Source of the DNA: Hymenobacter sp. APR13
Lineage (GTDB): Bacteria > Bacteroidota > Bacteroidia > Cytophagales > Hymenobacteraceae
Direction: 5' to 3'
DNA: 64,000 nucleotides
Assembly (NCBI RefSeq): GCF_000737515.1
Contig: NZ_CP006587.1
Location: 3,901,001 to 3,965,000 of the forward strand
In this document: piece after piece, positions 3,061 to 32,649 of the stretch
How positions within the stretch are numbered: position 1 is the stretch's first letter
Layout of the letters: each line of letters starts with the position of its first letter
Position numbers and translations under genes: made by a program
Notes under the pieces: model-generated
What the model was told of the DNA's origin: nothing
Seen by the model: the letters and a program-made list of their open reading frames with translations, nothing else
Databases searched by the model: none

Positions 3061-3195
3061 CTAGTTCCCCTCCTTGGAAAGGAGGGGCTAGGGGTGGTTG
3101 ACCTTACGTTAGAACAATGCTAGAACTAGTTTCTAGTTGCTGTTCAACGATTGCCAACCACCCCTAGTCCCCTCCTTTCCAAGGAGGGGAATTAG
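3061..3195. repeat. Inverted repeat of the CCCCTCCTT...AAGGAGGGG type
   Basis: The arm at 3061-3100 and the arm at 3155-3195 are about 40 bp each and reverse-complementary with a one-base indel. Each arm is itself a hairpin (CCCCTCCTT...AAGGAGGGG) followed by CTAGGGGTGGTTG. It sits downstream of the minus-strand peroxidase gene and may act as a transcription barrier. No transposase is associated. Confidence 0.75.
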
Positions 3196-3257
3196 CTCTC
3201 TAGCTCTGGTTTTACTGTCCGCAATTTGGGTTACTTGATAACGATGGGCCTGACCAT

Positions 3258-5175
3258 TTAGTACCGGCCGCTTACGGGGCGCTGGTTGAGGTGGGCCAGC
3301 TTGGTGGGGAAGGCAGGGAGGCTGCGCGGGGTTTCGCGGCGGAGGCCGGTGGTATCGGTGAGGGAGTGGAGGAAGATTATCAGGTCCTGCTTCTCGCGGG
3401 GGGTGAGGTGGAGCGGGTCGGGCGGGAGGGTTTGGTTGGGCACCGTGAGGCCCCGGCCCGCGCCGCCGCCCTGGTCGTAGAACTCCACCACCTCGGCCAA
3501 GGTGCGGTAAGTGCCCTGGTGCATGTAGGGCGCGGTGAGGGCGATATTGCGCAGGGTGGGCGTTTTGAAGGCGTGCTGCTGCCACTGGATGCCGGTGGCC
3601 CCGGCCCGGCCGGGGTCGGCGTCGAGGCGGAGGCGGTTGGGGGCAGCCAGGGTGCCCAGGACTTCGTTTTCGCTGCGCTCGAAGCCGGGCGGTACGGTGC
3701 CGTTGAACAGCGGCAGAAAGTGGCAGGTGGCGCATTTGGCCTTGCCCAGAAACACGTTGGCCCCGCGTTGGGCCGCCGGCCCCAGCGCCGTGGTGTCGCC
3801 GCGCAGGTACTGGTCGAGGGGCGAATTCAGGCGCACCAGGGAGCGGAGGTAGGCCGCCAGGGCGGCCTTCAACTGCGCCTCCTGCACGGGCGCGGCGGGC
3901 GCGGCGGCGAAAGCCCGGGCAAAGGCGGCTCGGTAGGCGGGGCTGCGCGTGAGCAGCCGGGCCGCGGCGGCCATCGAGCCGTGCATTTCGGTAGGGTTGG
4001 CCAGCACGGTCGCGGCCTGGTCTTCCAGGAAGCTCACCCGGCCGTCGTGGAACTGGGTGCGCTGCAAGGCGGCGTTGAGCAGGGTGGGCGCGTTGCGGGC
4101 CACCGCCCCCGGCCCCGAAGGCCACGCTGCGGGCCTGCCCATCGGTGAAGGCGCGGGCGGGCTGGTGGCAGCTGGCGCAGCTGCGGCTGCCGTTGCCCGA
4201 CAGCACGGGGTCAAAGAATAGCTGGCGGCCCAGCGCCACCTGCGCCGGAACCGGCCGCGCGGTGGTGGAGGGGGCAAAGGCCGCCGGCTCAAATGCATCG
4301 GGGGCAAACAACGAGGGCGCATCGGGCCGCAGGGCGCGGGTTTCGGGGAAGGCCGGAATGCCCAGGGCCTGCTGGGTGGCCCACAGCTGCCGGCTGAGCG
4401 GCTCGGCGTAGCGGGCCAGAAACGTGAGCCAGTCGAAGCGGGCGGCGTCGGGGTGGCGGCGCAGGTAGCCCAGCGCCGCCCCGAAGCGGGCCGCGAGGCG
4501 GCGGGCGGCGGGGTCAGGCAGGCGGCGCTGGTAAGGAGCCACAGTAGCCTGCACGGTGGCCAGCGCGGCGGCGGCCTCGGCCACGGCCCCCGGTGAGGCG
4601 GGCGTGTCGAAGCCGGTCAGCCCCAGCGTCATCACCCGGAACACCTCCAGCCGGGCCGCGTCGAATACGTGGCGGTCGGTGAGGGTGAGGCCGTCGGCGG
4701 CGTGGCGCAGGCTTAGCAAGCTGCTGTGCACCAGGGTTAGCTGCTCCAGCACCTCGGGCCGGCGGGCCGGGGCGTAGAGGGCAGGGTAGAAGTACGTTTC
4801 CAGCACCTGCAAACCCTCGGGAGCCCGTACCCGCTGCTGCTGGTCGAACTCCTCCACCTCGCCCAGAGCGGGGCCGTTGAGAGCTTTGGCGGTGGAGGGG
4901 CTGTAGTACTCGGCCAGCAGCTCCACCCGTTTCCAGGCCAGCCGCGCCGCCAGAAACGCCCGCCGCTGCCGGGCCGCCGGCTGGCCCGTGGCCACCGCCC
5001 GCTGCAGCACTGCCACGGCCGAATCGAACTGCGCCACGTGGTGGTGGTACTGGCCCAGCACCAGCCCGGCCGGCGTCGGGGCCGGCTCCGAAGCGGCGGC
5101 CGACGGGCCGGTCCGCTGGCAGCTTGCCCATATCAGCACCAGGGCCGAGATGAGTAGAGGTAAAGTTCTGTTCAT
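3258..5175 (-). pseudogene. Di-haem cytochrome c peroxidase (MauG/CcpA type) lipoprotein, interrupted by a frameshift
   Basis: Two overlapping frames together encode one protein. The first part starts at 5175 with a lipoprotein signal (LIWASC) and a roughly 270-residue helical region resembling the imelysin-like N-terminus found in some Bacteroidota peroxidases. The peroxidase domain begins with the first haem site CASCH (about nt 4180). Just after [11 protein letters not shown] the frame is lost. The other frame continues correctly with [13 protein letters not shown], the second haem site CATCH (about nt 3727) and the usual [17 protein letters not shown] ending at 3258. Removing one base from the run of five C (plus strand 4106-4110) restores [11 protein letters not shown], so one extra base explains the break. 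It may be a sequencing error, a phase-variable tract or true inactivation. The family reduces hydrogen peroxide in the periplasm. Confidence 0.85.
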
Positions 5176-5373: not shown

Positions 5374-6855
5374 TTAGCGGGGCAGGCCGCTCAGGATGAC
5401 CACCTGGCTGGCCTGGTCGTTGCCGTTGTTGGGCTTGGCGCCGCCGTCTTTGTATTTCTGGGCGCGCCAGGAGTGGGGCTGGATGCAGAGGGCAAACGTG
5501 TTGGGCTGGCCCAGCACGTCCGACACGTCCATCAGCGCGCCGTACTCCCAGCTGCCTTTGGTGGAGGCGGCCGGCGTGTAGGCGGTGCCCGTCACGTTGT
5601 ACTTGTCCTTGTCGGCTTCGGTGCGGCGGTGGTCCAGCTCCAGCACCTTCTTCAGCTCGCCGGTGGCAATGTTGTACTGGTAGATGTAGGCATCGTGGGT
5701 TTCGGTGCCGTAGCCGTTCGAGTCCTCCTGCACATACACGTAGTTCTGGGTCACGCAGATGTTGTCGGGGTTCTGGAAGTCCTTCGCCTTGCCGGCGCGG
5801 TCGTCGCCGTCGAGAACCAGCTCCAGGGTGCCCAGCAGCGGGTTCTGCTCGTTGAGCACGAGGCGGTAGGTGCGGCCCCACTTGGTGCGGCTCTGGTCGG
5901 CATTCACACCCGTGAAGTCCTGGCCCGTTACGTTGAAGTACACCTCGCGGCCGTTGGCTCCGCTGCCCTTGCGGTAGTCGATGTCCTCCACCCGGCCAAA
6001 CTTGATGGCCTTCAGCGGGTCAACCTGGGCCTGTATCTGCGTGCCGGTGAGGTTCTTGTAGTCGGGGATGGCCACAAATTCCACGTCGTACCGCTGGCCC
6101 GTGGCCATGTCCTTTTCGCGCTGGTTCAGGTCGCGCCGGCGCAGCATGTACTGCTGGCCGCCGTCCAGGTCGCCGAGGGCGTTGCTCAGGTACAGGGCCA
6201 GCTGGCCGCCGGTGGCGTCGGAGGCGTCCTCGCCGGTGAGCACTACGGTTTTGCCGGGGTAGGCCGTTTTGGGCAGAGGCACGGCGTTTTCGGCGCTCCA
6301 GTAGCCCAGGCCCCGCACCCCTTTGGGCGTGCTTTGGGTGTTGTTGTCGGCGAAGGGCTGAATCAGGTGGGTCTGGGCGTCCACGGCGCTTTCGCCGGAG
6401 CTCAGGAAGTAGGGGCCGAAGCCGTGCTCCTCGGGCGTCACCATCGTGCCCGAGCACAGCCGCCACCGGCCGCCGTCGGAGTTGAGCAGGTACTCGCCCC
6501 CGACGGGGCGCAGGGTTTCATCGAAGCGCACCCGGGAAATGGCCAAGTTGTCTTCGTGGTTGACCAGCAGGGTGAAGCCCTTGCCGTCGGGGTTGCGCAG
6601 CAGGCCCGCGCCGTCGGCCGAGCCCCCGAACATGAAGTCGGGCGAGGCGGCCAGCTTGTCGTCGGAGCTGATCAGCGAGTACAGCTTCACGCTCTCGAAA
6701 CCGGGTAGGGTTTTGGCCAGCACCGGCGTCACGGAGTAGTTGTCGAGCTTGACGCTGTTGGTCGAGGCCTCGTCGTTGTCGTCGGAGCAGGCGGCCAGCG
6801 AAGCCGAGAGGGCCAGCGCCGCCAGCAGGCGGGCCGAAAGGGTAGGAGTGTGCAT
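5374..6855 (-). CDS. PhoX-like (DUF839) lipoprotein, putative phosphatase
   Basis: The chosen start (6855) gives MHTPTLSARLL... with a lipobox LAAC and a cysteine followed by SDDNDE, typical of a surface-exposed Bacteroidota lipoprotein. The upstream in-frame Met at 6906 would spoil this signal. The body carries PhoX/DUF839 hallmarks: TLLVNHEDN, TPEEHGFGPYFLSSGE, FGRVEDIDYRKG, FQNPDNICVTQ and a C-terminal LCIQPHSW. PhoX enzymes are calcium/iron-dependent alkaline phosphatases, so phosphate release from organic phosphates is the likely role. The metal ligands were not checked one by one. A di-haem peroxidase lipoprotein gene lies downstream in the same orientation. Confidence 0.75.
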   Translation of the reverse strand: MHTPTLSARLLAALALSASLAACSDDNDEASTNSVKLDNYSVTPVLAKTLPGFESVKLYSLISSDDKLAASPDFMFGGSADGAGLLRNPDGKGFTLLVNHEDNLAISRVRFDETLRPVGGEYLLNSDGGRWRLCSGTMVTPEEHGFGPYFLSSGESAVDAQTHLIQPFADNNTQSTPKGVRGLGYWSAENAVPLPKTAYPGKTVVLTGEDASDATGGQLALYLSNALGDLDGGQQYMLRRRDLNQREKDMATGQRYDVEFVAIPDYKNLTGTQIQAQVDPLKAIKFGRVEDIDYRKGSGANGREVYFNVTGQDFTGVNADQSRTKWGRTYRLVLNEQNPLLGTLELVLDGDDRAGKAKDFQNPDNICVTQNYVYVQEDSNGYGTETHDAYIYQYNIATGELKKVLELDHRRTEADKDKYNVTGTAYTPAASTKGSWEYGALMDVSDVLGQPNTFALCIQPHSWRAQKYKDGGAKPNNGNDQASQVVILSGLPR

Positions 6856-7106: not shown

Positions 7107-8510
7107 ATGCTGCTCACCATTACCACCACCCACCAGCCCGCCACCGACCTGGGCTACCTGCTGCACAAGAACCCCGCCCGCCTCCAGACGCTGGAGCTCA
7201 CCGCCGGGCAGGCCCACATCTTCTACCCCGAAGCCACGCCCGAGCGCTGCACCGTGGCCGTGCTGCTCGACATCGACCCCGTAGGGCTGGTGCGCAGCCA
7301 GAAAGGCGCCGCCACCGAGGGTTTCGCGCTGGCCCAGTACGTCAACGACCGGCCCTACGTGGCGTCGTCGTTTCTGAGTACGGCCCTGGCCAAAGCCTTC
7401 AACACGGCCATGAACGGCACCTGCCAGGACCGCCCCGAACTGCCCGATGCGCTGCTGCCGCTGGAAGTTTCCGTGGCCGTGGTGCCTGCTGCCGGCCCCG
7501 CGCAGCTGCACCGCCTGTTTGCGCCGCTGGGCTACGAAATCGAAACCGAAGCGCACCCGCTCGACTCCACCCGGCCGGAATGGGGCGACAGCCGCTACTA
7601 CACGCTGCGGCTGCGCCACCCCGCCCTGCGCCTGCGCGACCTGCTCACGCACCTCTACGTGCTGCTGCCGGTGCTCGACAACAACAAGCACTACTACATC
7701 GGGCCGGCCGAGGCCGAGAAGCTGCTGCTGCGCGGCGGCGAGTGGCTGCCGCGTCACCCCGAGCGGGAGTTTATCACGCGCCGCTACCTGCGCTTTGCCG
7801 AGTACGTGAACCCCACGCTGGCGCGCCTGCTGGCCGTGGAGAAAGATGCCGAGGACGACGAGCGCGCCGCTGAGCTGACGCCTGACAGCCCGCAGCCCGC
7901 AAATCCCGGCCAGAAGCTCCACGACCAGCGCCTGGACCGCGTGGCCGAGGTAATCCGGGAGCTGGGGGCGAAGCGCGTGCTGGATTTGGGCTGCGGCGAA
8001 GGCAAGCTGGTGCGCCGGCTGCTGCTGCAGCCCCAGGTGGAGCACGTGCTGGCCCTGGATGTGAGTTGGCGGGAACTGGAGCGGGCCGGGCAGCGCCTGC
8101 ACCTCTCGGAAATGCCCCCGCGCCAGCGCGAGCGGCTGACGCTAGCTCAGGGCTCGGTGCTCTACCACGATGCCCGCCTGGCCGGCTACGACGCGGCGGC
8201 CGTGGTGGAAGTCATCGAGCACCTCGACGAAAACCGGCTGGCGGCCTTCGAGCAGGTGGTATTTGCCCGGGCCTGCCCCGGCAGCGTGCTCATCACCACC
8301 CCCAACGCCGACTACAACCAGCGCTACGAAACCCTCTCGGCCGGCGACTTCCGCCACCACGACCACCGCTTCGAGTGGACGCGGGCTGAGTTTGCCGACT
8401 GGGCCGCCGGCGTGGCCGCGCGTCACGGCTACCGGGTGCGCCTGGAGCCGCTGGGCCCGGAAGCCGCCGAGGTAGGTGCGCCCTCGCAGCTGGCCGTGTT
8501 TGAGCGGTAG
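7107..8510 (+). CDS. hen1: Hen1, 3'-terminal RNA ribose 2'-O-methyltransferase
   Basis: This 467-residue protein matches the two-part architecture of bacterial Hen1. The N-terminal half (about 1-250) is the Hen1-specific domain that in characterised systems works with Pnkp during ligation. The C-terminal half is a methyltransferase with the SAM motif VLDLGCGEGKLVRRL (about residue 290). The metal-site segment VVEVIEHLDENR is followed by TTPNADYN and FRHHDHRFEW, supplying the Glu/His ligands of Hen1 enzymes. Bacterial Hen1 methylates the 2'-OH at the 3' end of a cleaved RNA before sealing, which protects the repaired site from renewed ribotoxin cleavage. The pnkp gene begins 53 bp downstream on the same strand, the usual operon order. 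Confidence 0.92.
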   Translation: MLLTITTTHQPATDLGYLLHKNPARLQTLELTAGQAHIFYPEATPERCTVAVLLDIDPVGLVRSQKGAATEGFALAQYVNDRPYVASSFLSTALAKAFNTAMNGTCQDRPELPDALLPLEVSVAVVPAAGPAQLHRLFAPLGYEIETEAHPLDSTRPEWGDSRYYTLRLRHPALRLRDLLTHLYVLLPVLDNNKHYYIGPAEAEKLLLRGGEWLPRHPEREFITRRYLRFAEYVNPTLARLLAVEKDAEDDERAAELTPDSPQPANPGQKLHDQRLDRVAEVIRELGAKRVLDLGCGEGKLVRRLLLQPQVEHVLALDVSWRELERAGQRLHLSEMPPRQRERLTLAQGSVLYHDARLAGYDAAAVVEVIEHLDENRLAAFEQVVFARACPGSVLITTPNADYNQRYETLSAGDFRHHDHRFEWTRAEFADWAAGVAARHGYRVRLEPLGPEAAEVGAPSQLAVFER

Positions 8511-8563
8511 AGGCCGCCGAACCACCGTTTACCGTCTAGTATCCTGCTTCGCTTTGAGTAGCT

Positions 8564-11203
8564 ATGCCCCAATCTACCACCTCCCTCAGGCTTCCCGAAC
8601 TCTCCCTCGTCCTGCTCATCGGCACGTCTGGGGCGGGCAAATCCACGTTTGCTCGGCGGCTGTTTCAGGCCACCGAAATTGTATCGTCAGACCAGTGCCG
8701 GGCGCTGGTGGCGGATGATGAGAACGACCAGTCGGCCACGCCGGAGGCCTTTGCGCTGCTGCACTACCTGGTAGGGCTGCGCCTGAAGCGCGGTTTGCTG
8801 ACGGTGGTGGACGCCACCAACGTGCAGCCCGAAGCCCGCAAGACCCTGATTCAGCTGGCCCGCGACTACCACGTGCTGCCCACCGCCGTCGTCCTCGACG
8901 TGCCCGACCGCGTGGCCGAGGACCGCAACCGCCAGCGCGCCGAGCGCCAGCACCTGGGCCGCCACGTCATCCCGAACCAGCGCCAGCAGCTGCGCCGCAG
9001 CCTCAAGAGCCTCAAGCAGGAGGGATTCCGCCACGTGTACCACCTGCGCGGCCCCGAAGAAATTGACGCCGTGCAGACCATCCAGCGCGACCCGCTCTAC
9101 AGCAACCGCCAGCAGGAAACCGGCCCCTTCGACATCATCGGCGACGTGCACGGCTGCTACGATGAGCTGCTGACGCTGCTCGCGCAGCTGGGCTACACCG
9201 TGGAAACCGAGCCCGTGACGGACGTGCGGGATTTGGGCGTACGCGTGACAGCGCCGGTGGGTCGTCGAGCTCTGTTCTTGGGTGATTTGGTGGACCGCGG
9301 GCCGGCCTCGCCCCAGGTGCTGCGGCTGGTGATGCGCATGGTGCAGGACGGCCTAGCGCTGTGCGTACCCGGCAACCACGACATCAAGCTGCTGCGCTAC
9401 CTCAACGGCAAGCAGGTGAATGAAAAGCACGGCTTTGCCGAAACCGTGCAGCAGCTGGCCCCGGAATCCAACGCGTTCAAGAGCCAGGTGCGGCAGTTTC
9501 TGGATGGGCTGGTGAGCCACTATGTGCTCGACGGCGGCCGGCTGGTGGTAGCCCACGCGGGTATGCGCGAAGAAATGCAGGGCCGCGGCTCGGGTGCCGT
9601 GCGGGCCTTTGCGCTGTTCGGCGAAACCACCGGCGAAATCGACGAATTCGGCCTGCCGGTGCGCTACAACTGGGCCTCGGAGTACCGCGGCCGGGCCACC
9701 GTAGTGTACGGCCACACCCCCGTACCCGACCCCGAATGGCTCAACAACACCCTTGACATCGACACGGGCTGCGTGTTCGGTGGCCGCCTCACCGCCCTGC
9801 GCTACCCCGAGCGGGAGCTGGTGTCGGTGCCCGCCCAGCAGGTGTACTGCGAGCCGGTCCGGCCGCTTCGGGCTGAGTTGTCAGCTTCTTCGCCAGCGGA
9901 ACAGGACGAACAGCCAACAACTAACAGCCAAGAGCTAACAGCTCAACAAAAAAACGATGAGCTGCTGGATTTGCAGGACGTGCTGGGCAAGCAGATTATC
10001 AAAACGCGGCTCTTGCCATCGGTGACGGTGCGGGAGGAAAACGCGGCGGCGGCGCTGGAGGTGATGAGTCGGTTTGCGCTGAATCCGAAGTGGCTGCTGT
10101 ACCTGCCGCCCACCATGAGCCCCTCCGAAACCTCGGCGCTGCCGGATCTGCTGGAGCACCCCGCTGAAACCTTCGACTACTTCCGCCGCCAGGGCCTGGA
10201 GCGGGTGGTGTGCGAGGAAAAGCACATGGGCAGCCGCGTGGTGGTGGTTTTGGCCCGCAGTGAGGACGCCGCCCGCCGCCGCTTCGGCGTAGTGGGCGAG
10301 GGGCCGGGCAAGGTGTACACCCGCACCGGCCGCAACTTCTTCACCGATGCCACGCTGGAAGCCGCTTTCCTCACCCGCCTGCAGGATGCTCTCACGGCCA
10401 GCAGCTTCTGGGAGCGGTTCAGCACCGACTGGGTGTGCATGGATGCCGAGCTGCTTCCGTGGTCGGCCAAGGCCCAGGAGCTGATCAAAAACCAGTACGC
10501 TGCCGTGGCCGCCGCCGCTACTGCCGCGTTGCCCGAAGCCGCCGCCGTCCTCACCCAGGCCGCCGCCCGCGGCCTCGATGGGGCGGAGGCGCTGCTGGCC
10601 CGCACCACTGCCCGCCAGTCGGCCGCCCAGCACTACGCCGAGGCCTACCGCCGCTACTGCTGGCCGGTGGACAGCCTTGCCGATTTGCGCCTGGCCCCGT
10701 TCCACCTGCTCGCCACCGAGGGCCGCACCTACTTCGACAAAGACCACGCCTGGCACATGGAAACCCTGCGCGCCATCTGCCTGGCCGACGAAGGCCTGCT
10801 CCGCGCCACGCCCTACCGCGTGGTGCACCTGCAGGATATTGCCGACGTGGAAGCCGCCACCCAGTGGTGGCTGGACCTCACGGCGGCCGGCGGCGAAGGC
10901 ATGGTGGTGAAGCCCTACGACTTCATCCCCGCGGGCCAGAAACAGCTGGTACAGCCGGCCCTCAAGTGCCGCGGCCGCGAGTACCTGCGCATCATCTACG
11001 GCCCCGACTACCTGCTGCCCGGCAACCTGGAGCGCCTGCGCGAGCGAAACGTGAAGAGCAAGCGCAACCTGGCCCTGCGCGAATTTGCCCTGGGCGTGGA
11101 AGGCTTGGAACGGTTCGTGGCCGGTGCCCCGCTGCGCGAAGTGCACCAGTGCGTATTCGGCGTGCTGGCCTTGGAAAGCGAAGCCGTGGACCCGCGGCTG
11201 TAG
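8564..11203 (+). CDS. pnkp: Pnkp, RNA polynucleotide kinase-phosphatase-ligase
   Basis: This 879-residue trifunctional RNA-repair enzyme has three domains in order. The N-terminal 5'-OH kinase has the P-loop GTSGAGKST (residues 20-28) and DATN. A calcineurin-like 2',3'-phosphatase follows, with DIIGDVHGCYDE (from about 190), GDLVDRGP, GNHD and VVYGHTP. The C-terminal ligase/adenylyltransferase domain has nucleotidyl-lysine motif EEKHMG (Lys553), EGMVVKPYDF and LKCRGREYLRIIYG. Bacterial Pnkp heals and seals broken RNA ends together with Hen1, whose gene is just upstream. A linker around nt 9,886-9,957 between the phosphatase and ligase is Gln/Ser/Thr/Asn-rich and visibly lower in GC than its surroundings. 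All catalytic signatures looked for are present, so the enzyme should be active. Confidence 0.93.
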   Translation: MPQSTTSLRLPELSLVLLIGTSGAGKSTFARRLFQATEIVSSDQCRALVADDENDQSATPEAFALLHYLVGLRLKRGLLTVVDATNVQPEARKTLIQLARDYHVLPTAVVLDVPDRVAEDRNRQRAERQHLGRHVIPNQRQQLRRSLKSLKQEGFRHVYHLRGPEEIDAVQTIQRDPLYSNRQQETGPFDIIGDVHGCYDELLTLLAQLGYTVETEPVTDVRDLGVRVTAPVGRRALFLGDLVDRGPASPQVLRLVMRMVQDGLALCVPGNHDIKLLRYLNGKQVNEKHGFAETVQQLAPESNAFKSQVRQFLDGLVSHYVLDGGRLVVAHAGMREEMQGRGSGAVRAFALFGETTGEIDEFGLPVRYNWASEYRGRATVVYGHTPVPDPEWLNNTLDIDTGCVFGGRLTALRYPERELVSVPAQQVYCEPVRPLRAELSASSPAEQDEQPTTNSQELTAQQKNDELLDLQDVLGKQIIKTRLLPSVTVREENAAAALEVMSRFALNPKWLLYLPPTMSPSETSALPDLLEHPAETFDYFRRQGLERVVCEEKHMGSRVVVVLARSEDAARRRFGVVGEGPGKVYTRTGRNFFTDATLEAAFLTRLQDALTASSFWERFSTDWVCMDAELLPWSAKAQELIKNQYAAVAAAATAALPEAAAVLTQAAARGLDGAEALLARTTARQSAAQHYAEAYRRYCWPVDSLADLRLAPFHLLATEGRTYFDKDHAWHMETLRAICLADEGLLRATPYRVVHLQDIADVEAATQWWLDLTAAGGEGMVVKPYDFIPAGQKQLVQPALKCRGREYLRIIYGPDYLLPGNLERLRERNVKSKRNLALREFALGVEGLERFVAGAPLREVHQCVFGVLALESEAVDPRL

Positions 11204-11225
11204 GGTGGAAAAGACGGTGGGCTCA

Positions 11226-11312
11226 GGCACGGCATGCTGAGCCTGCCGAAGCATCGCTACTGCTTCGTTGAACTTGTACAGGCAAAGTGGTAGCGGCGTT
11301 TCGGCAGGCTCC
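11226..11312. repeat. Remnant of intergenic repeat family B
   Basis: The segment contains CATGCTGAGCCTGCCGAAGC and an inverted AGCCTGCCGAA / TTCGGCAGGCT pair (11240-11250, 11300-11310). This is the same core as the CATGCTGAGC...GAAGC elements at 28030, 59404 and 60944. It lies just downstream of pnkp and may include its transcription stop. Confidence 0.45.
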
Positions 11313-11378
11313 GGCTGGTAAGCATGGTGCTTTTCTCAATTCCCATTACTTCTCAAGCAGCTTAGAACCTTATCGACT

Positions 11379-11825
11379 GTGGCCTCTTATAAGCTTCTGC
11401 TATACGTTGGGAGTACGCTCTTTTTAGCCTGCAATAAGGCGGCGGAGGTCCGGGAAATAGCGCCCCTCGGGTTAGTTGTCAATGGTGATAGTCTGATAGT
11501 AGGCGAATCAAGCCTGGAAAAAGTGCGTGCAACATTGCGTATTCGTGGGGCGAACTCCTTTGTCGAAACCTACTGCAGCGTTACCGATTCCAACAAGAAC
11601 CGCTTGCGGGACACGATGTGGTATAGTTGCGCTGTCCAGGTGCCATATACTGCGTACGAAATGTCATTTGCAGGCGGTAACAGGCGGCATATGCTATTGA
11701 CTTCTGTTACAAAGCGACAAGACGGGCGTGATGCTTGGGGAGAAGAACGACCTGCATTCGTCCTGGCCGAAAGTAGAAAGACTGAGTATCCATTGATCCG
11801 GTACTGTACCTGTCACCATGAATGA
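11379..11825 (+). CDS. Small hypothetical lipoprotein
   Basis: The 148-residue product starts at a GTG (MASYKLLLYVG...) with a short hydrophobic segment and lipobox LFLACN, so it is probably a lipoprotein. The body has several cysteines (two within YCTCHHE at the C-terminus) and no motif I recognise. Base composition is clearly lower in GC than the flanking genes, which may indicate a recently acquired or poorly conserved gene. It lies between pnkp and the metalloprotease gene. No function is proposed, and expression is not certain. Confidence 0.5.
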   Translation: MASYKLLLYVGSTLFLACNKAAEVREIAPLGLVVNGDSLIVGESSLEKVRATLRIRGANSFVETYCSVTDSNKNRLRDTMWYSCAVQVPYTAYEMSFAGGNRRHMLLTSVTKRQDGRDAWGEERPAFVLAESRKTEYPLIRYCTCHHE

Positions 11826-12150
11826 AATTCTTCCCGAATCCCTCCTGCACTTTTCCCAACGGCCAGACTACCGGCTTTCCTGCTTCTTCAACCACTTCAG
11901 CGCCGCTGCTACTTTAGCAACCTGGTGCCGGCCGGTGGAGTTGGCGCCGTGGGGGCAGTGGCGGCAGTTGTTTTGGTAGTGGCGGGCTTGGGATGTCAGT
12001 CGACCAAGGCCAGCAGCAGGAAGGCCAAAAGGCAGCGGCCCGGGCGATGAGCAGCAGCGGACACAAAGGCGCGGGGTGGGGCTGACGGCCGCCACGCCTG
12101 CAAAGGCAAGCGCGCGGCCGGAAATGCAAGGGTACTCGAGGCTTCTGCTT
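11826..12150. other. 325-bp stretch without a convincing gene
   Basis: Both strands contain only short GC-driven frames. A plus-strand frame after the stop at 11825 would encode a short Gly/Ala/Val-rich hydrophobic segment followed by a basic tail (about 11,925-12,050). It has no good start codon or ribosome-binding site, so it is not called. Confidence 0.4.
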
Positions 12151-13092
12151 CTATTGGGGGCGGAGTTTTTCGGCGTAGCCGCTCCGGGCCAGGAAGGCCG
12201 GGAAATCGTGGGTGGTGAGCATCGTGGCCAGGGCCTGCTTTTTGTCGGCAGATTTGGTGTAGTAGGCCTGGCAGATTTTGTAGCCCACATAGTAGCCCAG
12301 GTCGCAGGGCTTTTCGGTGGTTTCCTGCGTGCTGTTGGCCAGCCAGTTGTGGGTGTCGGTGCCGTGCATTTCCTGCTCAAAAGCGCGCCACAGTGCTGCC
12401 TCGTGGGCATTGCTGTAGGTGTGCAGCCGGGCGTTGTTGCCCAGCGTTCCGGTCACCAGCTCTGCCACAAAGTCGGCCATGCCTTCTCGAATGGCCGCGC
12501 CGAGGAGCGTGCCATCGTTAGGCTGCTGCACGTTGTGCACCATTTCGTGGGTTATCAGGCTGGGCAGATCCGTGATGGGGCCGCAGCGGTTGCGTTGCAC
12601 CAAGGTCAGCTCCGAGGTGTCCACGCCGGGGCCGTTGGCTGTTTGGTCGAGCCCGATAAGCAGGCCCGGCGGTTGGGCCGTGCTGCCCGCGAATCCGCCC
12701 ATCAGAAAATAGATGTGGCTAAAACGGGCCGGCGGATAAAGCGCCTGAAACTGCCGGAGGGCCGCTATAATCTGCGGTTTCTGGGCGGCTACCGCCAGCG
12801 TGGTTTGACGTATGGAGGCGTAGTAGCGGGGCCGTTGGGTGATGCGCCGGGCAAACCGCACCGGGTCGTTCTGGTACTTGCGGGCGTAATAATCGCGCAG
12901 GCCGGGCGAGGCCTTGGCGAAATACTGTTCCTGGAATATCCGGTATGCCTGGGCCGTGTCGCGCAGAGCCGCCGGATACGCGGCCCAGAAGTTGTCGAGG
13001 TCCTGCGTAATCAGTTGCACTTGCTCTACCCGCGTCAAGCGGTTGGTGCAACTGGTGGTCAGAAGCAGGACAACGAATACGAAACGGCGCAT
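12151..13092 (-). CDS. DUF2268-like zinc metalloprotease lipoprotein
   Basis: The start at 13092 gives MRRFVFVVLLLTTSC, a compact lipoprotein signal; an alternative Met lies three codons earlier at 13101. The longer upstream extension has no signal and is rejected. The mature protein of about 300 residues contains LITHEMVHNVQQ, the HExxH zinc-protease motif, with a downstream REGMADFVAEL helix that could supply the third ligand. DLGYYVGYKICQAYY resembles DUF2268/GldB-like proteins. It is probably anchored to the outer membrane or periplasmic face. It is oriented opposite to the flanking RNA-repair genes and shares no obvious operon with them. The substrate is unknown. Confidence 0.7.
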   Translation of the reverse strand: MRRFVFVVLLLTTSCTNRLTRVEQVQLITQDLDNFWAAYPAALRDTAQAYRIFQEQYFAKASPGLRDYYARKYQNDPVRFARRITQRPRYYASIRQTTLAVAAQKPQIIAALRQFQALYPPARFSHIYFLMGGFAGSTAQPPGLLIGLDQTANGPGVDTSELTLVQRNRCGPITDLPSLITHEMVHNVQQPNDGTLLGAAIREGMADFVAELVTGTLGNNARLHTYSNAHEAALWRAFEQEMHGTDTHNWLANSTQETTEKPCDLGYYVGYKICQAYYTKSADKKQALATMLTTHDFPAFLARSGYAEKLRPQ

Positions 13093-13259
13093 AAAAGGCA
13101 TAAGTAGGTAGACGAAGGCTGAAGCGGCAGAAGTACACGGCCACACCGCCTGCTGCCAGCGGACGATACGCGGCACAACATCGAAAAAAACAGATGGCTT
13201 CCCCAATATGGGCACTTGTTCCCTGATACCTTTAGGCCAGCCATTTTATTGACATTCCC

Positions 13260-14015
13260 GTGCACGCCCGCATCCAGACCGCCCTCACCCAGCTCGAAGC
13301 CACGCATAACATCCGCGTTTTGTACGCCTGCGAGTCGGGCAGCCGGGCCTGGGGTTTTCCCTCGCCCGATTCCGACTACGACGTGCGCTTCATCTACTGC
13401 CATGCGGCCGACTGGTACCTGACCCTCGACGACGGCCCCGACACGCTCAGCTTCCCCGTCGATGACGAGCTGGATTTGGGTGGCTGGGAGCTGCGCAAGA
13501 CGCTGAAGCTGCTGCGCGGCTCCAACGCGGCCCTGCTGGAGTGGCTTCAGTCGCCAGTGGTGTACCGGGAGGCGGCCGGGTTTCGGGCGGCGCTGCAGGC
13601 GCTGCTGCCCGCCTGCTGGAATCCCCGGGCCGGCCTGCACCACTACCTAGGCCAGTTGCGGCGCGGGGTGGAAGAGGACCTGACCGGCGAGCAGGTGCGC
13701 CTCAAGCGGCTGTTTTACGCCCTGCGCTCGGCCCTGGCCGCCCGCTGGATTCAGCGTTATCCTGACCAAGTGCCGCCCATGGAATTTGCCCAACTGCGCG
13801 CGCTGCTGCCGCCGGACCTGAACGACGCGGTAAACGCGCTGCTCGCCCGCAAAGCCACCGCCGACGAGAAAACCACCGTGCCCCAGCCGGCGGCGCTGGT
13901 GGCTTACCTGCAGCAGGAATACGATACGGCCCAGATTGCCCGCGCCACCCTGCCCGTCCCGCACCAGCCCAACCCCACGCCGGCGCTGGACAGCGTGTTC
14001 CGGGCCTGGCTGTAG
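13260..14015 (+). CDS. RlaP-type nucleotidyltransferase (polymerase beta superfamily), first copy
   Basis: The 251-residue protein begins at GTG 13260. Its N-terminus shows the nucleotidyltransferase signature ESGSRAWGFPSPDSDYDVRF, with the GS motif and the SDxD metal-binding aspartates of the polymerase-beta fold. A helical C-terminal region follows. This matches the RlaP family (B. subtilis YcgL type), described from comparative genomics as associated with RNA ligase and RNA-repair genes. That fits the nearby hen1-pnkp pair. The actual reaction, for instance nucleotide addition to an RNA end, is unproven. Its stop codon lies inside one arm of a perfect 28-bp inverted repeat shared with the convergent GNAT gene. 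Confidence 0.75.
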   Translation: MHARIQTALTQLEATHNIRVLYACESGSRAWGFPSPDSDYDVRFIYCHAADWYLTLDDGPDTLSFPVDDELDLGGWELRKTLKLLRGSNAALLEWLQSPVVYREAAGFRAALQALLPACWNPRAGLHHYLGQLRRGVEEDLTGEQVRLKRLFYALRSALAARWIQRYPDQVPPMEFAQLRALLPPDLNDAVNALLARKATADEKTTVPQPAALVAYLQQEYDTAQIARATLPVPHQPNPTPALDSVFRAWL

Positions 14016-14103
14016 CGCGAAGCCTTTGCTTCGCGTTTCGTTGCGAAATCAGTCGGTTTATTCGGCTGTTCAGGCAAACGCGAAGCAAAGGCTTCGCGCT
14101 ACA
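14011..14103. repeat. Perfect 28-bp inverted repeat spanning two convergent stop codons
   Basis: The arms at 14011-14038 and 14076-14103 are exact reverse complements, beginning TGTAGCGCGAAGCC, and are separated by 37 bp. Each arm also folds on itself (CGCGAAGC...GCTTCGCG). The TAG of the upstream nucleotidyltransferase (14013-14015) and the TAG of the GNAT gene (minus, 14099-14101) are both inside the arms. It could act as a bidirectional transcription stop. Confidence 0.9.
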
Positions 14104-14575
14104 GCTGGTAGATAACCTCTTCCACTTCCATCTGCCGGGCGGGGGCGAATCCTTTATCGGTACCGATTTGCACGAAGCCGCAGTTTTCCAGCACTTTTCG
14201 GGAGCCTAAATTGTCGAAGGCGACCCGGCCGTGCAGGGGGCGGGCTGGCTCCAGCTCCAGAAACTGCCGCAGCGCGGCGGTGGCCACACCCCGGCCCCAA
14301 AAGCTCCTGTCCAGCCAATACGTAATTTCGGCGTCGCCTTCGATTTCAGACTTGGAGATACTGCCTGCCAGCTCCCCGTCTACCAGAATGCTTTGCATGT
14401 GGATGGTGGGGTTGAGCAGAAAACGGCGGAATTTGGCGAGGTAGGCGGTTTGGTCAGCGTTTTCGGCGGGCACGAAGGCGGCCAGGCGGCAGGCTTCGGC
14501 ATCCAGCTGAAACGTGAAGAGGTGCGGTAAATCGGCCTCCTGTGTGGGCCGCAGTTGTACAAGGGTAGCCGACAT
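14099..14575 (-). CDS. GNAT family N-acetyltransferase
   Basis: The 158-residue product has the GNAT layout. It starts LVQLRPTQEADLPHLFTFQ, has a central strand with EITYWLDRSFWGRGVATAAL (acetyl-CoA-binding motif A, variant Q/RxxGxG/A) and the closing FDNLGSRKVLENCGFVQIG. This is close to the RimJ/RimL-like group that acetylates protein N-termini or small amines; the substrate cannot be inferred. It is divergent from the second RlaP-type gene with only 31 bp between the two start codons, so their promoters must overlap or lie within neighbouring coding sequence. Confidence 0.85.
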   Translation of the reverse strand: MSATLVQLRPTQEADLPHLFTFQLDAEACRLAAFVPAENADQTAYLAKFRRFLLNPTIHMQSILVDGELAGSISKSEIEGDAEITYWLDRSFWGRGVATAALRQFLELEPARPLHGRVAFDNLGSRKVLENCGFVQIGTDKGFAPARQMEVEEVIYQL

Positions 14576-14606
14576 CCTGAATCAATGGGGTTACATTAGT
14601 GGCAAT

Positions 14607-15689
14607 ATGCTGACTATCGACGACCTGCGCCAGCGGGGCCTGATTCTGTTTGAGGCCCTGAGCGGCAGCCGCGCCTACGGCACCGATTTGCCCCACTCCG
14701 ACGTGGATCTGAAGGGCGTGTTCATCCTGCCCGAAACCGAGTTCTACGGCCTCGACTACGTGCCCCAGGTGACTAACGCCACCAACGACGAGGTGTACTA
14801 CGAGCTGCGCCGCTTCGTGGAGCTGCTGCTCAAAAGTAACCCTACGGCTCTGGAGCTGCTGGCCTCGCCCGAGGATTGCGTGCGGCTGCGGCACCCGTTG
14901 TTTGAGGCGTTTCGGGTCGAGGATTTCCTCTCGCAGCTGTGCCGCCAGAGCTTCGCTGAGTACGCCGTGGCCCAGATCCGCAAAGCCAAGGGCCTCAACA
15001 AGAAAATCAACCACCCCGAGCCGCCCGCCCGTAAGTCGGTGCTGGATTTCTGCTACGTGACCGTGGGAGCCGGGGCACAGCCGGTAGCCACCTGGCTGGA
15101 ACGGCGCGGCTACTTGCCTACGCAGTGCGGCCTGGCCAACGTGAACCACCTCCACGACCTGTACGCCCTGTTCGTGGACGAAACGCCCGATGGCCGCCAC
15201 GGCTACCGGGGCCTGCTGCGTGACGCGGAAACCTCCCAGGACGTGCTGCTTTCGGCCGTGCCGAAGGGGGAGGTGCCCGTGGCGTACCTAAGCTTCAACC
15301 GCAACGGCTATAGCACCTACTGCCGCGTGTTTCGGGAGTACCAGGAGTGGGAGCAGAAGCGCAACCCTGAGCGGTACCAGAACACCGTGCAGCACGGCAA
15401 AAACTACGACGCCAAGAATATGCTGCACGTGTTCCGGCTGCTGGGCATGGCCGAGGAAATTGCCACTACCGGCCGCCTGCACGTGCGCCGCCCCAACCGG
15501 GAGTTCCTGCTGCAAATCCGCCGCGGCGAGTTCGAGTACGAGCAGCTGGTAGCCGAGGCCGAAGCTCTGGTAGCGCGCGTAGAAGCCGCGTTTGCCGCCT
15601 CTGCGCTGCCCGAAACCCCCGACCGGGCCGCCGCCGAAGCCCGGCTGGTGCAGGTGCGGCGGGCGTGGTACGCGGCGCAGGTGGCGTAG
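14607..15689 (+). CDS. RlaP-type nucleotidyltransferase, second copy (longer form)
   Basis: The start at 14607 (MLTIDDLRQRG) is preferred; the frame remains open upstream but runs into the divergent GNAT gene. The 360-residue product carries EALSGSRAYGTDLPHSDVDL, again the GS...SDxD nucleotidyltransferase signature. KNYDAKNMLHVFRLL and GEFEYEQLVAEAE follow, typical of the longer RlaP/YcgL-like proteins. It differs from the first copy in length and in most residues outside the active site, so the two are old paralogues or separate subfamilies rather than a recent duplication. Location in the hen1-pnkp neighbourhood supports a role in RNA-end processing, but this is inference. Confidence 0.75.
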   Translation: MLTIDDLRQRGLILFEALSGSRAYGTDLPHSDVDLKGVFILPETEFYGLDYVPQVTNATNDEVYYELRRFVELLLKSNPTALELLASPEDCVRLRHPLFEAFRVEDFLSQLCRQSFAEYAVAQIRKAKGLNKKINHPEPPARKSVLDFCYVTVGAGAQPVATWLERRGYLPTQCGLANVNHLHDLYALFVDETPDGRHGYRGLLRDAETSQDVLLSAVPKGEVPVAYLSFNRNGYSTYCRVFREYQEWEQKRNPERYQNTVQHGKNYDAKNMLHVFRLLGMAEEIATTGRLHVRRPNREFLLQIRRGEFEYEQLVAEAEALVARVEAAFAASALPETPDRAAAEARLVQVRRAWYAAQVA

Positions 15690-16137: not shown

Positions 16138-16380
16138 AAGGCAAGCAGCGTTGGTGTGCCGTTAAAACTGAGCGTTTGTGCAGAAAATTGCATTGCGGGA
16201 CGAAATGGGGGCATATTCTTGCCATTGTGCTCGTTAGCTCTTCGAATGATGCCAAAAAAGTATTCTTTCTAAACGAGATTTTGCCGGTTTCGACCCCAAC
16301 AGCCGCCGCCGCCTACCGGCGCGGTGTGGAATGTGGGGCCGGGCGGCATCAGCAGGGAAACACTCTATCCGTCCCTGCTT

Positions 16381-19300
16381 ATGTTCCTACCGTTACGCGC
16401 CCTGTTCTGCCTGCTGCTGCTTGCGCTGCCGCTGCATCTGCCCGCCCAGCAGCGCCTAGCCACCGCCCGCCAGCGCAGCTACCTTACCAAAGTCTTCCGC
16501 CTCACCGACGCCCAGACCCGGCAGCTCTACGAAACCGACCTCAGCCGGGCCCGGCCCGAGTTCTTCACCCAGCCCGTCGACTCGTTTCCGACCGACAGCG
16601 CCGCCCTTGGCCGGCGCCGGCCGCTGCCGCCCGGCTACTACCTGGTGGCCCACACCGAAGGCGCCCAGCTGGTGTACTGGCTGCGTGCCGTCACGGACCG
16701 CCAGCTCACGCTGCTCGACAACCAGACCGACCTCACGCTACTGGTGCGCGACTCGCTGGGCCGGCTGCTCGAAGACGCCCGCGTGAGCTTGCCCAAAGGG
16801 CAGCTGGTGCCGTTTGATGCCGCCACGCGCAGCTACCGCCTGCCCGGCAAAGCCGGCCGCGCCGGGCTGCTGGCCGTGGAGCACGCCGGCCGCACCACGT
16901 TTCACGCGCTGGAACAGACGTTTCCGAGTGGGGAACGGCGGCGGCCGGTCTGGGGCTGGCGGCGGGTGGTGTATGGCTTTCCGCTGGGCTACCTCACCCG
17001 GCCGGTGCGCAGCCTGTATTTTCAGCTGCGACACCCCTCGTACAATACTACCGGGCTGGTGGGGCTGCTGCGCTCGGTGTTCAGCGAAGACGTGCGCGAC
17101 CAGCGCCAGAGCCGCCGCCAGGACGAATGGGTGAGCTACCTCGCCCTCAGCAAGCCCCTGTACCGCCCCACCCACGACACGCTGCGCCTCAAAGCCCGCA
17201 TCCTGCGCCAGCGCGACGGCCAGCCCTACAACCGTCCGCTGGAGCTGTGGCTCACCGGCGACCATCAGGCCAAAATCCGGCCGCTGGCGGTGCTGAAGCC
17301 CGTGCGCCCCGGCTCCTACGAGTACACGCTGCCCCTGAGCGATACGCTGAATCTGCGCGCCGACCAGACTGTGCGCGTCCGGCTGCTGGAACCCGGCGAC
17401 GCGGGCAAGCAGCTGGCTAGCGGCAGCTTCCGGCTGGAAGACTACGAGCTGAAGAACACCCGCTACACGCTGCGGGCTGCCGAAACGCCCCACCGGCGCG
17501 GCACGCCGCAGGCCCTGTTTCTGCGCGGCCAGGACGCCAACGACCTCAACCTGCTCGATGCGCGGGTGCGCCTGAGCGTGACGCCGGCCGGGGTAGGGGC
17601 CTTCCTTGGCCGCCAGGTGTTTGTGCCCGACACGCTCTGGACCCGCGCCCAACCCCTCGATGCCACCGGCGAAACCCGCCTCAACCTGCCCGAAACCGCG
17701 CTGCCCGCCGCCAACCTCACGTACTCGGTGCAGGCCACTTTCCTCAACTCCGACAACGAGCGCCGCACCCAGGCCCAGGCCGTCAGCTACACCCTCGACC
17801 CCGGCGAGCTGCTGCTGGAGCTGCGCCACGATTCGCTGCTGGCCCGCTACGCAGTGCGCGGCAGCAGCCAACCGGCCACGGCTACTCTCGAAACCGAGTC
17901 CCTCAACTACCTCCAGGTGCCCACGCTGCGCCGCGAAACCGTGGCGCTGCCGCTGGCCCGCCCGCTCGACGCCCGCGCCACCCGCTACCGCCTCTTCGAC
18001 GCCGCCGGCCACGAAACCCAGCTCACCCTGCACGAAGCCAACGCCGGCCTGCTGCTGCGCTCCGACCGCACCACCGACTCCATCCGGCTGGCTGTGGAAA
18101 ACCCGCGCCGGCTGCCGTTCTGGTACTACCTCTACCGCGGCAACACGCTGGTGCAGCGCGGTTACGGGCCGGATTTTGCTCTGCAAACGGCCGCCGCGGG
18201 CCCGGAGCCGTGGTACGTGTCGGTGCACTATTTCTGGGGCGGGCAGCTGCTGACGGCCGAGTACAACGTGCCGCTGCCCCAGCACCGCCTGCTGATCCAA
18301 GCCGACCAGCCCGAGGTGGTGTACCCGGGCCAGCGGGTGCGGCTGCAGTACACCGTCACGGATGGCGGCGGGCGGCCCGTGCCCCGCGCCGACCTCACGG
18401 CCTACGCCCACACCAGCAAGTTTGAAGTGGACGAAGCCCCGGAAATCCCCGATTTCGAACCGGCCGTGGCCGGGCGGCTGTCGTTGCGGCGGTTCCGGCT
18501 GGGGGCCGGCTTCGAAAATCAGGCCGAGCGGCCGGGGCAGCAGCCGCTAATCTGGGGCGCGTGGCGGCAGCGCCTCGGGCTGGACTCGCTGCGCTTCTAC
18601 CAGTTTCTGTATCCGGAATACGGCACGTTCCACGAGTACCAGCTTGCGCCGGGCGGCATCACCCAGATTTCGCCGTTCGTGGTGGACTCGGGGCGGGTGC
18701 AGACGGCGGTGGCCGTGTACGTGGATGGCGTGCCGGTGTACGTGGCTGGCGTCAACGGTGAGGAGCCGTTTGCGCTGGTGGCCGACAGCGGCCAGCACGC
18801 CGTGGCTGTCCGCACGCCCAACCGCCTCGTGACGCTGCGCGGGGTGCGGCTGCGCCACCTGCACAAACTCACGCTCAGCATCGACCCCAATCAACCCTGC
18901 CACGAGCTGACGGTGGAGAAGCGCGGCCCGCTCACCGAGGCCGAGCGCCAGCAGCTGCAACGCTTTCTGCTGCTGATCGATAAGCGCGACTACGACGAGC
19001 AGGTGCTGCTGCGCCAGGGCAACCGCCTGCAGCCCCTCGGCGCGGGCCGCCCGGTGCCGGTGGCCGGCGCTTCCACGCGCCGCTTCAGCTACAGCAGCTA
19101 CAACCGCTACGACCGCGCCGATTTCCACCTCGCCGGCCCCTTTCGGCCCGATTCGGTGCTGCTGCGCCGCTCCGACGGGCTGCGGCGCAAGTTCCTGCTG
19201 GAGCCCAACTACCGCTTCACTTTCGGGGCGGGGCTGCTGAAGATGCGCTGCGTGGCTGGCTCGGAGTTTGGCCGCCTGGGAGAGGCCACCAGCTTCGGGG

Positions 19301-26242: not shown

Positions 26243-26243
26243 G

Positions 26244-26317
26244 CGGTCCGGACGGGACTCGAACCCGCGACCTCCGCCGTGACAGGGCGGCATTCTAACC
26301 AACTGAACTACCGAACC
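26244..26317 (-). tRNA. tRNA-Asp (anticodon GTC), first copy
   Basis: The 74-nt cloverleaf on the minus strand begins GGTTCGGTAGTTCAGTTGG and has anticodon loop CCTGTCAC (GTC), T-loop GGTTCGAGTCC, a 7-bp acceptor stem with one G-U pair and discriminator G. CCA is not encoded. The unit, with promoter and terminator, is repeated with one mismatch in 164 bp at 32536-32699. Confidence 0.95.
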
Positions 26318-32574: not shown

Positions 32575-32575
32575 G

Positions 32576-32649
32576 CGGTCCGGACGGGACTCGAACCCGC
32601 GACCTCCGCCGTGACAGGGCGGCATTCTAACCAACTGAACTACCGAACC
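32576..32649 (-). tRNA. tRNA-Asp (anticodon GTC), second copy
   Basis: The 74 nt are identical to the copy at 26244-26317, with the same orientation, terminator and promoter layout. The 164-bp unit 32536-32699 differs from 26204-26367 at one base (32660, between tRNA and promoter). Confidence 0.95.

What the first reader, a model, noticed from the sequence alone, without database searches (positions are those of the whole stretch)
7107..15689. RNA-repair island: Hen1, Pnkp and two RlaP-type nucleotidyltransferases
Hen1 and Pnkp are encoded as a tight pair. Two separate proteins with the GS...SDxD signature of the RlaP polymerase-beta family lie within the next 4.5 kb. Hen1/Pnkp is an established pathway that repairs ribotoxin-cleaved RNA with a protective 2'-O-methyl mark. 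RlaP has been predicted from gene neighbourhoods to join RNA repair. Two RlaP forms in one neighbourhood suggest an extended pathway, for example end addition or nucleotidylation before ligation. It is inference that the genes act together, since three unrelated-looking genes sit among them and the strands alternate.
Basis: partly seen in the sequence, partly recalled or inferred. Interest (0 to 1): 0.7.

Follow-up and report, generated by a model that had tools for sequence, protein, structure and literature searches.

The report
Paired nucleotide-adders beside RNA-repair genes
A Hymenobacter-like chromosome carries a known RNA-repair enzyme pair next to two different nucleotide-adding enzymes that travel together and accompany several different RNA-repair systems in related bacteria, so the untested idea that lost nucleotides are put back before broken RNA is rejoined can now be tested on a defined pair.

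Summary
Hen1 (7107-8510) and Pnkp (8564-11203) match curated models full length. Two RlaP-family (PF10127) proteins follow: RlaP-A (13260-14015, full length) and RlaP-B (14607-15689, only the catalytic N-terminal part matches). They are this genome's only PF10127 matches. In 120 genomes of the bacterial family, all 52 with RlaP-A also have RlaP-B, same strand, order A then B. RlaP and Pnkp co-occur (both 49, RlaP only 3, Pnkp only 2, neither 66); in 44 of the 49 they lie within 16 kb on one strand. The three genes between them in the window recur in 0, 0 and 3 of 32 Hymenobacter loci. So the island is real. But the pair is not private to Hen1-Pnkp: elsewhere it sits with RtcB and Ro60, with Pnkp1-Rnl-Hen1, or with a T4-RnlA-type ligase, and 20 of 23 RlaP-bearing genomes in a phylum sample lack this Pnkp. 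Both proteins keep an invariant acidic triad; their models resemble nucleotidyltransferases, including Hailong HalB and the kanamycin enzyme. Best reading: a two-enzyme module that adds nucleotides to damaged RNA ends before ligation, shared among ligases. Association is shown; chemistry is inferred. Whether the tandem pair is already in print could not be checked in the key 2016 paper.

The parts
7107..8510 (+). Hen1, 3'-terminal RNA ribose 2'-O-methyltransferase with the ligase-activating N-terminal domain
   Evidence: TIGR04074 665 bits, Hen1_L 2.7e-105; phmmer to solved Hen1 domains 4dqz and 3jwi; EVIEH at residues 368-372 and HHDHR at 417-421 present
8564..11203 (+). Pnkp, 5' kinase + 2',3' phosphatase + ATP-dependent RNA ligase
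   Evidence: TIGR04075 1384 bits; solved homologues of kinase 4gp6, phosphatase 4j6o and ligase 4drf domains; P-loop at 20, GDVHG at 193, GDLVDRG at 240, GNHD at 270
13260..14015 (+). RlaP-A, Pol-beta-superfamily nucleotidyltransferase, 251 aa, full-length PF10127
   Evidence: PF10127 257 bits, 1-248 of 249; G27 S28, D39, D41, D72 invariant in 31 of 31 aligned sequences; model pLDDT 95.0
14607..15689 (+). RlaP-B, Pol-beta-superfamily nucleotidyltransferase, 360 aa, PF10127 core plus a distinct conserved C-terminal helical part
   Evidence: PF10127 78 bits, 20-139; G20 S21, D32, D34, D61, E66 and C-terminal W248, R252, N253, D268, K270, N271, H274, R277 invariant in 35 of 35 aligned sequences; model pLDDT 88.3
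11379..11825 (+). intervening ORF, lipoprotein-like, judged not part of the system
   Evidence: no Pfam or NCBIfam hit; found in 0 of 32 Hymenobacter loci
12151..13092 (-). intervening GldB/DUF2268-like predicted Zn-protease lipoprotein, judged not part of the system
   Evidence: GldB_lipo 6.9e-13, DUF2268 6.5e-10; found in 0 of 32 Hymenobacter loci
14099..14575 (-). intervening GNAT acetyltransferase, judged not part of the system
   Evidence: Acetyltransf_3 4.1e-17; found in 3 of 32 Hymenobacter loci

Best explanation
The locus is an RNA-repair island. Hen1 and Pnkp are the end-healing, methylating and sealing machine for ribotoxin-cut RNA (established for homologues). RlaP-A and RlaP-B form a conserved two-enzyme nucleotidyltransferase module that most likely adds nucleotides, without a template, to the 3' ends of damaged RNA (probably tRNA halves trimmed by exonucleases) so that the ends can be joined in register; two enzymes would mean two end or nucleotide specificities, or a heteromer. 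The module is shared: in relatives it serves RtcB/Ro60, Pnkp1-Rnl-Hen1 and T4-RnlA-type ligases. Shown: identities, conserved tandem pairing, co-occurrence, linkage, intact triads, nucleotidyltransferase-like models. Inferred: that the proteins act together, the substrate, the reaction, and why there are two.
For: A and B together in 52 of 52 family genomes with RlaP-A, one strand, one order, matched regions 41-4901 bp apart. Co-occurrence with Pnkp 49/3/2/66; 44 of 49 linked within 16 kb, all 44 on the same strand although the order is Pnkp-first in 36 and RlaP-first in 8. Intervening window genes not conserved: 0, 0, 3 of 32. Other genera show WYL - RlaP-A - RlaP-B - RtcB - (helicase) - Ro60 - Hen1 - Pnkp (L032; also L035 and L033/L034 with parts of it). 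A genome of another family of the order: Hen1 - Pnkp - 294 aa - A - B with a divergent WYL gene (L140). Other ligases with A and B: L147 RtcB, L148 Pnkp1-Rnl-Hen1, L149 T4-RnlA type. Outside Hymenobacter, of loci with at least 5 kb on both sides, 13 of 22 with A+B have a repair gene by my HMMs against 0 of 12 with B alone (Fisher p 6e-4). A and B distance matrices correlate, r 0.95 over 54 loci. Acidic triad invariant in both. Models closest to nucleotidyltransferases. In jumbo phages RlaP was reported to follow RNA ligases (PMC7824862, passages).
Against: No activity, expression or interaction data. In this window opposite-strand genes separate the repair genes. RlaP without full Pnkp in G003, G057 and G076; Pnkp without RlaP in G035 and G100; pair and Pnkp more than 1 Mb apart in G059 and G090 and on different contigs in G045, G053 and G084. 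Four A-only loci (L143-L146) show no repair gene by my HMMs, and 23 of 48 non-Hymenobacter loci have B without A; one of these (L117) has a Ro60-like gene but was outside the flank rule. Co-occurrence p-values ignore relatedness of the genomes. Foldseek gives RlaP-B no hit at E 0.001 or better and ranks kanamycin nucleotidyltransferase first; aminoglycoside enzymes tie with HalB for RlaP-A, so the fold does not point to RNA.
Confidence: 0.55

Rival explanations
1. RlaP-A and RlaP-B are protein-modifying nucleotidyltransferases (AMPylators), acting like MntA on HepT or as switches on the repair enzymes or on a co-encoded toxin, not RNA-end builders.
Confidence: 0.15
2. Hitchhiking in a shared defence island: RlaP genes and hen1-pnkp are separate anti-conflict genes that gather at the same sites without acting together.
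For: Defence genes lie between RlaP-A and RlaP-B in some Flavobacteriaceae: Hachiman HamA+HamB in L123 and L135, a HamB-like helicase with a NERD-like partner in L138, SIR2 in L097, an AAA_21 ATPase in L148. Strands alternate in the window.
Against: Co-occurrence persists when unlinked (5 of 49); all 44 linked cases are on one strand in two different gene orders; in the window's genus RlaP tracks Pnkp but not Ro60 or RtcB.
Confidence: 0.15
3. RlaP-A and RlaP-B make an oligonucleotide signal (as HalB makes oligo-dA) that reports RNA damage, for example to the divergent WYL regulator, and do not touch the broken RNA.
Against: No WYL gene found in 32 Hymenobacter loci within 10 kb; aminoglycoside enzymes tie for RlaP-A; the signal would need two enzymes.
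Confidence: 0.08

Closest known systems
Bacterial Pnkp-Hen1 RNA repair complex (described in PMC4411300, passages seen)
   Same: Both genes adjacent and full length, domains and motifs present
   Different: Two additional RlaP nucleotidyltransferases in the neighbourhood, which that complex does not include
[quoted passage not shown] prediction summarised in PMC7824862 (passages seen); original paper Burroughs and Aravind 2016 not held
   Same: Both proteins match the family and sit near ligase genes; proposed role is restoring nucleotides before ligation
   Different: Two subfamilies as an ordered tandem pair; RlaP-B has a distinct C-terminal part. Whether the pair was described in 2016 could not be checked
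Phage T4 Pnkp-Rnl1 tRNA repair and T4 NrdC.11
   Same: NrdC.11, annotated nucleotidyltransferase, aligns to the RlaP-B core (31% over 84 aa, E 2e-9)
   Different: No Hen1, no RlaP-A counterpart seen; only the core aligns
Hailong HalB nucleotidyltransferase (9dbh, 9dbi, 9dbj)
   Same: Best or tied structural match for both models
   Different: 12-15% identity over the aligned part; HalB acts in anti-phage signalling with DNA oligomers (PMC12657230, passages); different neighbours
rsr-yrl-rtcBA operons (Ro60, Y RNA, RtcB; PMC7790460, passages seen)
   Same: This genome has Ro60, three YrlA-like RNAs and RtcB in one locus about 220 kb away; some relatives place such genes beside the RlaP pair
   Different: Not linked to the island in this genome

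Membership tests
Hen1 (bacterial, TIGR04074) | full-length curated model above cut-off | tested here: met
   665 bits against 340
Hen1 (bacterial, TIGR04074) | metal and SAM motifs of the methyltransferase | tested here: met
   GCGEG 295, EVIEH 368, HHDHR 417; that these are the metal ligands is recalled
Pnkp (bacterial, TIGR04075) | kinase, phosphatase and ligase domains in one protein | tested here: met
   1384 bits; AAA_33, Metallophos, PNKP_ligase
RlaP (PF10127) | family profile above gathering score | tested here: met
   RlaP-A 257 bits and RlaP-B 78 bits against 23
RlaP (PF10127) | full-length match including C-terminal region | tested here: not met
   met by RlaP-A (1-248 of 249); not met by RlaP-B, which matches 20-139 only; so RlaP-B is filed as a divergent subfamily sharing the core
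RlaP (PF10127) | Pol-beta catalytic GS...SDxD and third acid | tested here: met
   D39, D41, D72 in 31 of 31; D32, D34, D61 in 35 of 35; third-acid assignment from the profile alignment D61 to D72
RlaP (PF10127) | gene association with RNA ligases | tested here: met
RlaP (PF10127) | nucleotidyl transfer to RNA ends | not testable with these tools
   needs biochemistry
Hailong HalB | similar fold | tested here: inconclusive
   best or tied structural match but low identity and no Foldseek E of 0.001 or better for RlaP-B
Hailong HalB | partner effector HalA encoded beside it | not tested
   PADLOC scan of the 7 window proteins gave no Hailong model, but the neighbourhood was not searched for HalA by name
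MNT antitoxin (MntA) | adjacent HEPN toxin gene | tested here: inconclusive
   no HEPN hit among the window proteins scanned; not every ORF was scanned

The most novel reading that the evidence does not exclude
RlaP-A and RlaP-B are an obligate two-subunit terminal transferase, a general 'end-rebuilding' cassette onto which four unrelated ligation chemistries have been plugged, and the space between the two genes is also used as a docking site for anti-phage modules; in some lineages their short oligonucleotide products may report RNA damage to the divergent WYL regulator.
Probability: 0.12. Interest if true: 0.8.

Novelty: new variant of a known kind. Interest (0 to 1): 0.5.

Why it matters
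RlaP was proposed from gene neighbourhoods to rebuild RNA ends, and I found no experimental test of it in the searches made (the 2016 source paper was not held). The data here define which two proteins to test together, show that pairing, not either protein alone, goes with repair genes in the sample examined, and offer a family of genomes where the module is present or absent together with Hen1-Pnkp. If the pair does rebuild ends, it explains how cells repair RNA that has lost nucleotides, a step that ligases alone cannot do.

Tried and rejected
Chance placement was rejected: two PF10127 matches in the whole genome, both here. General conserved synteny was rejected as the reason for linkage: intervening genes are found in 0, 0 and 3 of 32 loci, and upstream gene 5374-6843 in 0 of 32, though the downstream alpha-2-macroglobulin-like gene is in 8 of 32. 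A dead paralogue was rejected: the acidic triad is invariant in both. Exclusive dedication to Hen1-Pnkp was rejected. Sequence search against solved structures gave nothing for RlaP-A and only two marginal, unrelated hits (E 0.087 and 0.095, NADH dehydrogenase subunits) for RlaP-B. Rfam at gathering thresholds gave only two tRNA-Asp in the window and nothing in six relative loci. The folds of the YrlA-like stretches were no more stable than shuffles (z -0.09, -0.54, -0.39). A possible RNase motif in the RlaP-B C-terminal part was considered and not pursued: the histidine is missing in the Lak phage relative. Families not seen in the structure lists are not excluded.

Limits of counts: Pnkp in 51 of 120 counts G110, which is in pieces and below the cut-off, and G056, which is broken by a stop and frame changes; the tool's own tally over the cut-off is 50. 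RlaP-A in 52 counts G036, whose gene is in pieces. Two further genomes had only a fragment of A (G103) or only B (G115). G003 has an RlaP-B gene with a stop. Genus and family labels of G genomes are the tool's numbers, not names; 'Hymenobacter' for the window rests on 94% RlaP-B identity to a named record. The neighbourhood HMMs were built from Hymenobacteraceae proteins and miss distant ligases, so those counts are lower bounds. Pnkp (21) and Hen1 (10) of 32 Hymenobacter loci are limited by the 10 kb flank.

Full report
1. What is there. Hen1 (7107-8510 +) and Pnkp (8564-11203 +) are full-length members of their curated families (665 bits against 340; 1384 against 750), 53 bp apart. RlaP-A (13260-14015 +) matches PF10127 over 248 of 249 positions (257 bits). 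RlaP-B (14607-15689 +) matches PF10127 only at positions 20-139 (78 bits) and carries a longer C-terminal part of its own. A 5.01 Mb genome with exactly two PF10127 matches has both here. The three genes between (11379-11825 +, 12151-13092 -, 14099-14575 -) show no tie to RNA repair.

2. The two RlaPs are different subfamilies. A profile comparison aligns them only over 77 columns of the catalytic core (probability 96.7). Within 31 RlaP-A and 35 RlaP-B sequences the glycine-serine and three acidic positions are invariant, so both look catalytically able; the third acid is assigned through the profile alignment. RlaP-B also has an invariant C-terminal set (W248, R252, N253, R256, D268, K270, N271, H274, R277).

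3. They travel as a pair. In 120 genomes of the family, 54 have a PF10127 match; 52 have RlaP-A and all 52 have RlaP-B, on the same contig and strand, in the order A then B, with 41 to 4901 bp between matched regions; one genome has B alone and one only a fragment of A. In a phylum sample of 296 genomes, 23 have PF10127: 17 both, 4 A only, 2 B only; in 16 of the 17 the two are on one contig and strand, in one they are on different contigs. Distance matrices of A and B correlate (r 0.95 over 54 loci; 0.76 within 29 Hymenobacter, 0.84 within 25 others; 0 of 2000 permutations reach these), as do A and Pnkp (0.89, 19 loci); vertical descent alone would also give correlation.

4. They go with Hen1-Pnkp in this family. 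Both 49, RlaP only 3, Pnkp only 2, neither 66 of 120 (Fisher p 2e-27, not corrected for relatedness). Split by genus: in the window's genus 35, 1, 1, 6 (p 8e-6); in the other genera 14, 2, 1, 60 (p 2e-12). In the window's genus RlaP does not track Ro60 (29, 7, 5, 2; p 0.62) or RtcB (36, 0, 6, 1; p 0.16). Of 49 with both, 44 are linked within 16 kb, all on one strand, Pnkp first in 36 and RlaP first in 8; three are on other contigs and two are over 1 Mb apart. In 32 named Hymenobacter loci centred on RlaP-B, RlaP-A is present in 32 and Pnkp in 21 within 10 kb, but the window's intervening genes are in 0, 0 and 3.

5. They also go with other ligases. In other genera of the family the cluster reads WYL (opposite strand) - RlaP-A - RlaP-B - RtcB - helicase - Ro60 - Hen1 - Pnkp (L032), with variants L035 (no Ro60) and L033/L034 (two RtcB, TPR proteins). 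G264, of another family of the order, has Hen1 - Pnkp - 294 aa - A - B with a divergent WYL gene (L140). In the same class: RtcB with A, B and WYL (L147); Hen1_N-type Hen1, a stand-alone PNKP-ligase-like Rnl and a kinase-HAD phosphatase with A and B (L148), i.e. the make-up of the Pnkp1-Rnl-Hen1 system of PMC4411300; and a T4-RnlA-type ligase with a kinase-phosphatase, A and B (L149). In the phylum sample 20 of 23 PF10127 genomes lack a TIGR04075 Pnkp, and 2 of 5 Pnkp genomes lack PF10127.

6. Pairing, not RlaP-B alone, goes with repair. Among 48 loci outside Hymenobacter, 25 have A beside B, all same strand; 23 have B without A. With at least 5 kb on both sides, 13 of 22 A+B loci have Pnkp, Hen1, RtcB or Ro60 by my HMMs against 0 of 12 B-only loci (p 6e-4). 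L117, B-only with a Ro60-like gene, fell outside the flank rule. Four A-only loci show no repair gene by the same HMMs. These HMMs miss distant ligases.

8. Phages. tblastn finds RlaP-B-like proteins in 241 phage records and RlaP-A-like in 80. Of three annotated RlaP-B neighbourhoods opened, two have a CCA-adding-type enzyme nearby (L053, L054) and one has none annotated (L052); the one RlaP-A neighbourhood opened has an RNA ligase RnlA (L055). T4 NrdC.11 aligns to the RlaP-B core.

9. Repair context in the same genome. About 220 kb away lie Ro60, three YrlA-like RNAs (30.6, 42.5, 42.4 bits, below the Rfam gathering score of 69) and RtcB in a row, the layout known from rsr-yrl-rtc operons (PMC7790460, passages).

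10. Mechanism. Shown for homologues by others: Pnkp heals and seals ribotoxin-cut ends, Hen1 methylates the 2'-OH so that the repaired RNA resists the same toxin (PMC4411300, passages). Inferred: RlaP-A and RlaP-B add nucleotides to trimmed ends first, as predicted for RlaP in general (PMC7824862, passages). Two enzymes may serve two ends, two nucleotides or one complex; nothing here decides this.

11. Novelty. The kind (RNA-repair cluster with RlaP) is known. The conserved A-B pair with interchangeable ligases was not found in the papers searched, but the 2016 source paper was not held, so priority is open.

Noticed in passing
L139:7694-11688 (same genome, about 220 kb from the island): Ro60 gene, three tandem YrlA-like RNAs and RtcB in a row; YrlA scores are below the Rfam gathering score.
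   Followed up: partly
L123:5804-9987, L135:6378-9979: Hachiman HamA and HamB genes lie between RlaP-A and RlaP-B in two Flavobacteriaceae.
   Followed up: partly
L138:6662-9995; L097:9165-10004; L148:7877-9862: Other inserts between RlaP-A and RlaP-B: a HamB-like helicase with a NERD-like partner, a SIR2 protein, and an AAA_21 ATPase.
   Followed up: no
L032:1861-3618: WYL regulator fused to a phytanoyl-CoA dioxygenase-like domain, divergent from the RlaP pair; WYL genes are on the opposite strand in 10 of 10 non-Hymenobacter loci that have one.
   Followed up: no
L046:12372-12681: Two YrlA-like RNAs between Ro60 and Hen1 in a related genus (45.2 and 48.3 bits).
   Followed up: no
window 3133-5175 (-): MauG-like cytochrome peroxidase gene whose reading frame appears broken, with its C-terminal half in another frame (3258-4322); a related 647 aa frame is intact in L038.
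   Followed up: partly
window 16324-22560 (+): 2078 aa protein combining alpha-2-macroglobulin domains with a carboxypeptidase-regulatory-like and a TonB plug domain.
   Followed up: no
window 26243-26317 and 32575-32649 (-): Two tRNA-Asp genes with equal Rfam scores.
   Followed up: no
L106 and L112 (Neisseria): RlaP-A, a 180 aa protein without Pfam hit and RlaP-B beside a histidinol dehydrogenase gene; no repair gene seen by my HMMs within 10 kb.
   Followed up: no
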